From Leptolyngbya sp. SIOISBB (GTDB lineage: Bacteria; Cyanobacteriota; Cyanobacteriia; Phormidesmidales; Phormidesmidaceae): 64,000 nucleotides of DNA. The stretch spans positions 6,534,026-6,598,025 of the forward strand of contig JAAHII010000001.1 in NCBI GenBank assembly GCA_010671905.1, in the 5' to 3' direction. Below are positions 32,349 through 34,031 of this stretch, piece by piece; within the stretch, counting starts at the first letter, position 1; every line of letters starts with the position of its first letter. The position numbers and the translations under genes are program-made. The notes beneath the pieces were generated by a model. That model ran no database searches, was not told the origin of the DNA, and was given only the letters and a program-made list of their open reading frames with translations.

Positions 32349-32461
32349 ACAGACATTGAATGAAAGCGATCTCAGGTTGCTTCAGAAAGTCAAACAGCTC
32401 ATTGAGTCTAGCTTGTGGTCACTCATAGGGCATTACACTCTCCATTTGCTGCCTTCTGATT

Positions 32462-32680
32462 TCAGGAACATTGCCAAAACTTCTTGTCTGACCGAAAGCA
32501 GCTTATTAACACCTCTAATAAGCTGCTTTGAACTCCATGTATTTTTAGAAGATCAGCAATTATATTTTCGGTTTCCGCCTGTAATTCGGGATTGAGATAA
32601 TAGCCGCACAAATCGGAAACTCGCATCTCCTCAAGCAATATTTCCTGTTGTTCATCATTTAATTGGTCAAGCGATGACAA
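32462..32680 (-). CDS. Possible small acidic protein
   Basis: A 72-residue frame (MSSLDQLNDEQQEILLEEMR, SDLCGYYLNPELQAETENI) that looks protein-like but lacks a ribosome site and matches no family I know. It overlaps the hairpin at 32495. It could equally be a fragment. Confidence 0.3.
   Translation of the reverse strand: MSSLDQLNDEQQEILLEEMRVSDLCGYYLNPELQAETENIIADLLKIHGVQSSLLEVLISCFRSDKKFWQCS
32495..32529. terminator. 14 bp perfect stem-loop
   Basis: AAAGCAGCTTATTA/TAATAAGCTGCTTT with loop ACACCTC, A's on one side and T's on the other, so it can terminate in both directions. Confidence 0.6.
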
Positions 32681-32819
32681 GCTTGACTAAATGCACCCGT
32701 ATGCGAAAAAGCACAGCAAAAATATAAACATTTTAGGTAAAAGTTTATTCATAGCTGTAGGAAGGATTTAATCGCTATTAAAATATTAACTCTTTAAACA
32801 ATTATGGGTATTACTTTTA

Positions 32820-34031
32820 CTAAAGTATATTGGGATCAATGTCAGCCAACCACCACCTCTTATCAGAATTCCACTTGAATTTCCAATATTCGGTAAATGA
32901 TCGTAGACGAGGTTTCCCTCTAGTCACATATCCTTTAGGGGAAATCAAAAAGTTAATCATGCTCGCATTGATCTGTACTTTAAACAGATGTCCATCCTGT
33001 TCTTTCCTGAAATCTAAAAGAGCGATTTCAGATACTTTAGGTTGATAGATAACATCAATACTTGCACCATAGTTTTGTTGGAACTCATTATACTGAGCAG
33101 TATAGAAGGGTTCTGAAACATATTGCTTCATTGTTGTGAAATCTTTGTTCATCCAATCCTGCTGATATTGTGTGAACAAACGACAGACGTTCTCGAATAA
33201 CTCTTGCTCGTTGAGGAGATCCTGATATTGTTGAGAATCAATACTTGATTTAAGGGGAATTGCTTCCCAGATGTCGTTGCCAAGCTGATAACGAACTGAA
33301 TATTGGTTCGTAAATTCTGGAGAAATTGATTGAGTATGTTTGATTAGATCTTCATCCTCTGTGAATTCTTTTCTCCTGAACCGAATAAAGTTGTAAATCT
33401 CGCTAAGAAAAGCCATTGGCAGCAATCCCACCACTAGAAACAACACAGCTCTCAAGCCAGGAAACGAGAACGAGGTTCTACCAGGAGTGCTAGAGGAAAT
33501 ACCGCCTCCACCCTTATTGTGAACCAGGAAATCTCCAGCATAGAAGTTGTAGTTAGGCATGACAGAAATCAGGTTGTAGACAGTGATGGGTTCGCCAACA
33601 TATTGCAAGCTAGAAATACGAAGATTAGATTCTTTTCCTAGTAGTTGATCGCCGATTTTAAGTTGTCTTACCTCAACCTGTTTGATCCCTTCTGGGGTAA
33701 GAACGTAAAAGGGATGTGTCCCAGTGACTTTGATCGCATCATTGATCACGTAATACTCAGTTGCCGCAACTTCTTGAACTGTACCAACGGTTCCAATTTC
33801 CGATTGATGTCGAGACAGACTGTAACCAATGACCTGACTACCTTGTTGCAGTTGACTGATAGGTTGGTAGCCTGCTGGTGTCAAAATTGGGGTGTCGCCA
33901 GCAAAACATCCGCCACCACCGCCGCCACCGCCACCGCCTCGTGCATAAGCGGTCTCTGCTGTAAATAGACAAGACACCAGTAAGGCCAGAACGATTCCTA
34001 ATAATTGCCGCAACTGATTTTTCGTCTTCAT
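32820..34031 (-). CDS. Secreted/membrane Tim44-like protein with an inserted Hint (intein-like) domain
   Basis: A 403-residue protein from ATG 34031 (ATG 34112 would add 27). Order: signal peptide (LGIVLALLVSCLFTAETAYA), ten glycines, a Hint domain of about 131 residues, KGGGG linker, one membrane helix (LRAVLFLVVGLLPMAFLSEI), a linker, and a C-terminal Tim44-like domain (LFTQYQQDWMNKDFTTMKQY, VSEPFYTAQYNEF, EYWKFKWNSDKRWWLADI). Hint landmarks: first residue Cys after the Gly run (CFAGDTPILTPAGYQPISQL), block B TGTHPFYVL, and terminal NFYAGDFLVHN followed by Lys. Splice-competent inteins need Cys, Ser or Thr there; Lys suggests cleavage or bacterial-intein-like chemistry instead. Cyanobacterial Tim44-like proteins with ARGGGGG starts are known; the Hint insertion splits the glycine run exactly. 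A+T-rich relative to neighbours. Confidence 0.85.
   Translation of the reverse strand: MKTKNQLRQLLGIVLALLVSCLFTAETAYARGGGGGGGGGGCFAGDTPILTPAGYQPISQLQQGSQVIGYSLSRHQSEIGTVGTVQEVAATEYYVINDAIKVTGTHPFYVLTPEGIKQVEVRQLKIGDQLLGKESNLRISSLQYVGEPITVYNLISVMPNYNFYAGDFLVHNKGGGGISSSTPGRTSFSFPGLRAVLFLVVGLLPMAFLSEIYNFIRFRRKEFTEDEDLIKHTQSISPEFTNQYSVRYQLGNDIWEAIPLKSSIDSQQYQDLLNEQELFENVCRLFTQYQQDWMNKDFTTMKQYVSEPFYTAQYNEFQQNYGASIDVIYQPKVSEIALLDFRKEQDGHLFKVQINASMINFLISPKGYVTRGKPRLRSFTEYWKFKWNSDKRWWLADIDPNIL

What the first reader, a model, noticed from the sequence alone, without database searches (positions are those of the whole stretch)
32820..34031. Hint (intein-like) domain splitting a secreted Tim44-like protein
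A 131-residue Hint domain with Cys1, TGTHPF and terminal HN interrupts the Gly-rich stretch that in relatives runs straight into the membrane helix. The +1 residue is Lys, so normal splicing is not expected; N-terminal cleavage or release of the signal-Gly part is. The host gene is A+T-rich and lies among non-homologous neighbours, so the whole protein may be mobile.
Basis: partly seen in the sequence, partly recalled or inferred. Interest (0 to 1): 0.75.

Follow-up and report, generated by a model that had tools for sequence, protein, structure and literature searches.

The report
Intein-like domain in Tim44-like protein
A cyanobacterial membrane protein carries a small, probably self-processing (intein-like) domain between its signal peptide and its membrane anchor, and distant bacteria carry two to four such domains in a row at the same spot, in every complete copy read between a glycine and a lysine, which hints at a protein-cutting or protein-joining reaction worth testing.

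Summary
The 403-aa protein at 32820-34031(-) is signal peptide, R-Gly10, a 131-residue Hint domain (Cys42-Asn172, +1 Lys173), Gly/Ser linker, one membrane helix and a Tim44-like domain. The closest solved folds are bacterial intein-like (BIL) domains: Tetrahymena BUBL BIL2 and Clostridium thermocellum BIL4. It is no one-off: other cyanobacteria have the same architecture, and homologues in Desulfobacterota, Legionellaceae and single Auribacterota and Gottesmanbacteria MAGs carry tandem arrays of 2-4 Hints, several near LemA or DUF350 genes. All 49 complete Tim44-linked Hints read have Cys1, final His-Asn, Lys+1 and Gly+2; one truncated relative (L169) ends HG|G. The Hint is the most constrained part of the gene (dN/dS 0.055 against Tim44 0.197, one pair). 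A Hint-free relative (L005) is best read as a loss. Best reading: an active type-A-BIL-like autoprocessing domain in a secreted position, with Lys+1 as possible acceptor amine. No cleavage was measured. Recent mobility of the Hint by itself is not supported.

The parts
32820..34031 (-). Hint/Tim44-like membrane protein gene, 403 aa
33942..34031 (-). signal peptide, residues 1-30, ends AYA (cleavage site inferred from the motif)
   Evidence: hydrophobic segment; alignment
33909..33941 (-). Arg31 and Gly32-41 run before Cys1 (three residues, RGG or RRG, in 11 of 14 cyanobacterial copies)
33516..33908 (-). Hint domain Cys42-Asn172 (131 aa)
33513..33515 (-). Lys173, +1 residue, K in all 49 complete Tim44-linked Hints read
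33456..33512 (-). Gly/Ser linker, residues 174-192, low confidence (disordered) in the model
33378..33452 (-). membrane helix, residues 194-218
32838..33212 (-). Tim44-like domain, residues 274-398

Best explanation
The block is an active, type-A-BIL-like autoprocessing Hint domain, fixed in a secreted, membrane-anchored Tim44-like protein. After export, Cys42 takes over the peptide bond of Gly41 as a thioester (N-S shift) and Asn172 cyclises, freeing Lys173. The thioester is then either hydrolysed (the Hint is cut out) or attacked by an amine of Lys173, which rejoins RG(n) to KGGGG and leaves the Hint-free membrane protein. The array homologues would do this two to four times in one precursor. 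Shown here: the domain, its predicted fold, its position, invariance of the residues such chemistry needs, purifying selection, and conserved arrays. Inferred: that it reacts at all, that it does so outside the cytoplasm, and whether ligation or cleavage is the outcome. The use of the mature Tim44 part (several homologues lie near LemA or DUF350 genes) is unknown; a role in envelope maintenance is a guess.
For: C1, block-B T..H, penultimate H, final N, K+1 and G+2 in 40 of 40 Tim44-linked Hints, G(-1) in 39 of 39 readable; 9 more Hints of four Legionellaceae genes agree at C1, G(-1), HN, K+1 and G+2. In genes reached through Tim44 or whole-protein similarity rather than the junction pattern, 23 of 24 junctions are HN|KG: window, L002, L003, L004, L168 and L169, 9 of L139-L141, 9 of L195-L198; read; the exception is L169. 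dN/dS: Hint 0.055, helix 0.108, Tim44 0.197. Identity to the sister: Hint 92.5%, TM+Tim44 70%. Best folds are BILs. Array positions 1 and 2 are each one clade across Legionella, Auribacterota and Desulfobacterota; position 3 needs two changes. Contrast: five intein-like hits share E|C...HN|C, and two PT-HINT proteins have +1 Ala and, less surely, Leu.
Against: No activity was tested. The regular expression required Cys at the start and [HS][NG] with +1 K/G/A/R/S/T at the end, so a Hint without these would not have been counted (none was seen when the printed proteins were read, apart from incomplete ones). Cyanobacterial copies decay: L005 has lost the Hint, G013 keeps a 39-residue remnant, L168 has a frame break after the Hint, L017 ends after it, L169 ends HG. 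Conserved active sites are also expected of a selfish splicing element. Over seven divergent rows the Hint is only slightly more conserved than Tim44 (53% against 49%). Array model poor (pLDDT 54.6).
Confidence: 0.68

Rival explanations
1. Isopeptide variant (a sub-case of the best reading): the side-chain amine of Lys+1 (or a Lys on another protein) attacks the Gly thioester, so the N-terminal R-G(n) peptide ends up on a lysine side chain, as reported for Tetrahymena BUBL BIL2.
For: Lys+1 is invariant where a canonical intein has Cys/Ser/Thr; the residues between signal peptide and Cys1 are RGG in 10 and RGGGG in 7 of 40 Hints, like the RGG motif noted for BUBL (PMC9200820, passage). Top Foldseek and VIA-align hits are BUBL BIL2, for which the structure authors state an isopeptide bond to a Lys epsilon-amine (PMC8616854 section 2.4, passage).
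Against: 2lwy (Z 20.0) ties with BUBL BIL2 (20.8), and an intein has Z 19.2. The peptide to be transferred would be tiny (3-11 residues, inferred). Lys could be conserved for another reason. I could not check which Lys is used in BUBL.
Confidence: 0.15
2. Cleavage only (also a sub-case): the Hint cuts itself out, giving a new N-terminus Lys-Gly(n) on the Tim44 membrane protein and a free Hint; no ligation.
For: Reviews state that cleavage products dominate in BILs, which lack the +1 nucleophile (PMC4031507; PMC7664689; passages).
Against: Does not explain why +1 Lys and +2 Gly are invariant, nor why arrays are kept.
Confidence: 0.3
3. Passive relic: the Hint is a leftover folded insert without activity.
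For: Loss or decay tolerated in some cyanobacterial copies: L005, L168, L017, L169.
Against: Lowest dN/dS of the gene; 49 of 49 complete Hints keep the active residues.
Confidence: 0.06
4. Selfish, recently mobile Hint cassette that jumps between Gly-codon runs.
For: Unrelated proteins (phage tail proteins) also carry Hints inside Gly runs; unit number varies 2-4 in arrays.
Against: Cyanobacterial Hints are one clade (97/94), array positions 1 and 2 each one clade, flanks conserved in the sister, no endonuclease domain in the Pfam table. A single origin of all Tim44 Hints is not rejected (p-AU 0.288).
Confidence: 0.12

Closest known systems
Type A bacterial intein-like (BIL) domains, e.g. C. 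thermocellum BIL4 (PDB 2lwy; the name BIL4 is recalled)
   Same: Fold (Z 20.0), His-Asn end, no +1 Cys/Ser/Thr, about 130 aa
   Different: Gly(-1)/Lys+1/Gly+2 invariant in the copies read; place between signal peptide and membrane helix of a Tim44-like protein; tandem arrays in homologues
Tetrahymena BUBL BIL2 (PDB 6tmm, 6y75)
   Same: Best fold match (Z 20.8, 1.7 A over 135); RGG-type residues before Cys1 and isopeptide to Lys reported
   Different: No ubiquitin-like domain here; the N-terminal piece is only 3-11 residues after signal-peptide removal (inferred)
PT-HINT domains of polymorphic toxins (PF07591)
   Same: Same Pfam family
   Different: No toxin domain follows; junctions of the two examples read differ (one of them uncertain)
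Intein-like hits in other cyanobacteria
   Same: Hint, Cys1, HN
   Different: Those have +1 Cys and -1 Glu in a shared site (5 of 5 read)
Bacterial Tim44-like proteins (PF04280, NF033779)
   Same: Signal peptide, Gly-rich stretch, hydrophobic stretch, Tim44 domain as in Hint-free L126, L149, L158
   Different: Hint domain(s) placed before the membrane helix

Membership tests
Type A BIL | Hint fold with Cys1 and C-terminal His-Asn | tested here: met
   (fold from a predicted model)
Type A BIL | no Cys/Ser/Thr at +1 | tested here: met
   Lys in 49 of 49 complete Hints
[quoted passage not shown]
   the Gly run varies in length, but its place in the protein and the residues -1, +1, +2 are invariant
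Type A BIL | cleavage or splicing activity | not testable with these tools
   needs expression
Canonical (class 1) intein | +1 Cys/Ser/Thr | tested here: not met
   contrast
BUBL-type BIL | ubiquitin-like domain before the BIL | tested here: not met
   only signal peptide and R-G(n) precede
BUBL-type BIL | isopeptide to Lys | not testable with these tools
   needs mass spectrometry
Polymorphic toxin PT-HINT | Pfam PF07591 over its cut-off | tested here: met
   31.1 bits against 27.7
Polymorphic toxin PT-HINT | C-terminal toxin domain behind the Hint | tested here: not met
   Tim44-like domain follows
Tim44-like (PF04280) | Pfam match over cut-off and Tim44 fold | tested here: inconclusive
   window 26.4 bits against 29.6; fold match 2cw9 E 5.1e-5; five array homologues are over the cut-off

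The most novel reading that the evidence does not exclude
A bacterial family of secreted 'RGG-Hint-Lys' units that join a Gly carboxyl to a Lys amine without ATP, single in cyanobacteria and in tandem arrays of up to four in other phyla, on membrane-anchored Tim44 proteins: a prokaryotic counterpart of the ubiquitin-dispensing BUBL inteins.
Probability: 0.15. Interest if true: 0.9.

Novelty: new variant of a known kind. Interest (0 to 1): 0.64.

Why it matters
What BIL domains are for in bacteria is largely open (my own knowledge), and they are described as lying in variable regions (PMC5874633, passage). Here is a set in which both junctions are fixed from cyanobacteria to Legionellaceae and Desulfobacterota, in a non-toxin membrane protein, with tandem arrays of two to four. 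That makes the product of a BIL reaction predictable and testable, and it asks directly whether Lys+1 can stand in for Cys/Ser/Thr as the acceptor. If it can, it is a compact Gly-to-Lys ligation tool.

Tried and rejected
Canonical intein rejected: +1 Lys. Toxin release rejected: no toxin domain in the Pfam tables. Defence system: no PADLOC match for the window protein, one array protein, one LemA and one DUF350 protein. Empty ancestral site in L005 rejected in favour of loss: it nests inside carriers (99/95), and 22 nt match the start of the L003 Hint at the expected place (16 of 22; 10 of 5000 shuffles do as well anywhere in the region). A first global DNA alignment there was too fragmented to use. 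Further copies in the own genome: none found. Synteny in Hint-free same-genus genomes: G005 has the upstream neighbour but its contig ends there, so no verdict. In 386 genomes drawn from the phylum the whole protein found only itself and two distant Hints, so the gene is rare. Single or double origin of Tim44 Hints: unresolved. Array fold: model too poor to use. Plasmid and phage records gave only distant Hints; the first viral scan found nothing.

Rows dropped. Tim44 tree: L020 and L026 (missed by a regular expression) and 12 of 25 Hint-free candidates; the program warned that long branches meet between the cyanobacterial clade and the rest. Hint tree: 78 of 106 distinct Hints, as non-Tim44 rows over 80% alike were dropped; few columns for so many rows. 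Not among the 49 complete Hints: the first of L027 and of L141, the ones of L030 with unread bases, and L169; the readable ends of the first three are also HN|KG. In one search, 5 of 12 contrast loci could not be read and the L171 end is uncertain.

Selection bias: the genome-contig scan used a pattern HN[KG][GC][GL][GSA], so +1 counts on those loci are biased. The non-Tim44 set (66 distinct Hints: -1 G 61; +1 G 28, K 25, A 13) is biased in the same way, and its viral part is the best 80 of 155 loci.

Literature: no paper in the held PMC library holds both 'Tim44' and 'Hint domain'; the listings showed no title or abstract start on Hint arrays or Tim44-Hint proteins. Many subscription papers are not held, so this is weak. 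The primary BUBL and BIL papers were seen only in reference lists.

Full report
What is there. The minus-strand gene 32820-34031 encodes 403 aa. Residues 1-30 look like a signal peptide ending AYA; R31-G41 is an Arg-Gly10 run; C42-N172 is the Hint; K173 and a Gly/Ser linker follow; one helix (194-218) fits a membrane anchor, with RFRRK at its end. A Tim44-like domain follows (274-398). Pfam gives PT-HINT over its cut-off and Tim44 just under. An AlphaFold2 model from 16 aligned sequences has mean pLDDT 80.6 and pTM 0.49; block means are 82-94 in the Hint and 81-94 in the Tim44 part; residues 22-39 and 175-192 are under 50. Foldseek ranks Tetrahymena BUBL1 BIL2 and the C. thermocellum BIL domain first, then inteins, and finds human Tim44 for the other end; VIA-align gives Z 20.8 and 20.0 for the two BILs (a tie by its own rule) and 19.2 for the next intein. 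By the positive-inside rule the Hint would face the outside of the membrane and Tim44 the cytosol (inference). If signal peptidase cuts after AYA, the N-terminal piece is 11 residues here and 3 in 11 of 14 cyanobacterial copies (RGG or RRG; inference).

It belongs to a family. In the order, 63 genomes searched with the Tim44 part gave 5 full genes and one remnant: four with the Hint (window, L002, L003, L004) and L005 without it. In 386 genomes drawn from the whole phylum, the whole protein found only itself and two distant Hints, so it is rare. A scan of GTDB species genomes with a Hint alignment found 30 loci. They include the same architecture in Calothrix, Nostoc and a Xenococcaceae MAG, and a truncated gene in Fischerella, and a surprise: arrays. 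Legionella massiliensis (L028), a Syntrophales MAG (L029) and an Auribacterota MAG (L031) have three Hints in a row, a deltaproteobacterial MAG (L032) four, a Thermodesulfobacteriota MAG (L036) two, a Gottesmanbacteria MAG (L027) two, the first partly in a neighbouring frame. Of the 40 Hints, 16 run into the next one after K-G (7) or K-GGG (9); L027 and L197 have longer linkers. Behind the array come a Gly/Ser run, a hydrophobic stretch and, in L028, L029, L031 and L032, two Tim44 stretches (L036 is cut off by its contig). A LemA gene lies close by in L027 (divergent), L029, L030, L032 and L036; DUF350 is over its cut-off in L030 and just below it in L031 and L032; the small gene before L028 looks the same by eye but had no match. 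In nine cyanobacterial loci listed I saw, by eye, no such neighbours.

Samples not picked by junction. In 247 genomes of the phylum of the Syntrophales MAG (Desulfobacterota; the call gives no name), 46 had a match to the array-type Tim44 profile; 7 were of the double-Tim44 type (E<1e-100), and the 6 whose front part could be read (L029, L032, L036, L139, L140, L141) all carry arrays; the seventh (L143) is cut by its contig. In 140 genomes of the family of L. massiliensis, 5 have the gene, with 2, 2, 2, 3 and 3 Hints. Three other matches that I read in full (L126, L149, L158) are Hint-free Tim44 proteins with a Gly-rich stretch. In 243 genomes of the Calothrix order, 3 matched: L018's own; L168, with Hint and Tim44 in different frames after a long poly-Gly; and L169, cut by its contig, with a Hint end ILVHG instead of HN and no Gly run.

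Junction rule. Of 40 complete Tim44-linked Hints, 40 have Cys1, T..H, His, Asn, Lys+1 and Gly+2; Gly(-1) in 39 of 39 readable. The regular expression required Cys at the start and [HS][NG] at the end and allowed six residues at +1; reading the printed proteins showed no other complete Hint. Nine further Hints from L195-L198 agree. Counting only junctions in genes reached without the junction pattern, 23 of 24 are HN|KG; L169 is the exception. As a contrast, five intein-like hits in other cyanobacteria share E|C...HN|C, and two PT-HINT proteins have K|C..HN|A and, less surely, C|C..HN|L (5 of 12 loci could not be read that way).

Selection and history. Between window and sister gene, dN/dS is 0.055 in the Hint, 0.108 in the helix and 0.197 in the Tim44 part (crude NG86, one pair). 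Five neighbouring genes are 81-95% identical and in the same order, the Hint 92.5%, TM+Tim44 only 70%. Over seven divergent cyanobacterial rows the contrast is weak (Hint 53%, Tim44 49% mean identity). In the Hint tree the 14 cyanobacterial Hints are one clade (97/94), joined by Gottesmanbacteria (99/84); array positions 1 and 2 are each one clade across phyla, position 3 needs two changes because L029's third groups with the fourth of L032 and L141. So the array is old. Whether all Tim44 Hints share one origin is open (p-AU 0.288). In the Tim44 tree L005 sits beside Adonisia's gene (L021, the same gene as L003; 99/95) inside carriers, so its lack of a Hint is best read as a loss; a 22-nt stretch after its GGG resembles the start of the lost Hint (16 of 22; 10 of 5000 shuffles as good). 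The Gottesmanbacteria Tim44 falls within the cyanobacterial ones on a long branch (96/70), whereas its Hint falls just outside: transfer of the whole gene is likely, its direction open. Several cyanobacterial copies are decayed (remnant in G013, L017, L168, L169).

Mechanism. For type A BILs a review gives: thioester at the N-terminus, Asn cyclisation at the C-terminus, then attack of the freed amino group on the thioester, with cleavage products dominating (PMC4031507, passage). The residues needed are invariant here. What that model does not predict is an invariant Lys+1. Tetrahymena BUBL BIL2 is reported to form an isopeptide to a Lys epsilon-amine (PMC8616854, passage) and to have an RGG motif (PMC9200820, passage). 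The RGG|Hint|K layout resembles this, which is why I keep the isopeptide reading as the bold alternative. I did not see the primary BUBL paper.

Limits. Everything is from sequence and prediction. No reaction, product or location was measured.

Noticed in passing
L006 1507-1929, L007, L042, L043 (Leptolyngbya genomes), L033-L038, L041 and viral contigs L046-L125: Hints inside Gly runs near the start of phage tail proteins: L034 matches Phage-tail_3 and Rcc01698_C, L042 matches GpJ FNIII-A and Phage-tail_3. Only these two were checked by Pfam. +1 is mostly K, G or A; tandem Hints in L100, L104 and L117. Not part of the Tim44 story; may be a class of its own.
   Followed up: partly
L045 (Sericytochromatia) and L009: Hint followed by another Cys-led Hint-like start after a single Lys (HN-K-CLAADT in L045, HN-K-CLAAGS in L009), in non-Tim44 proteins.
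   Followed up: no
window about 32460-32752, minus strand: Small lipoprotein-like ORF (MNKLLPKMF...) interrupted by an in-frame stop; an 89-aa ORF starting MNKFLPS lies at the same place in L016.
   Followed up: partly
L168 1341-1520 and L017 4400-4477: Long poly-Gly runs after the Hint; the frame changes between Hint and Tim44 in L168, and the frame ends there in L017. Real decay, slippage or assembly error cannot be told apart.
   Followed up: no
L044 (Patescibacteria): Two Hint-like starts with HN|KGGGGG between them in one open frame cut by the contig end; host domain unknown.
   Followed up: no
L039 (archaeon MAG): Hint with HN|KGGGGGGG behind a predicted beta-propeller (PQQ/BamB-like) region.
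   Followed up: no
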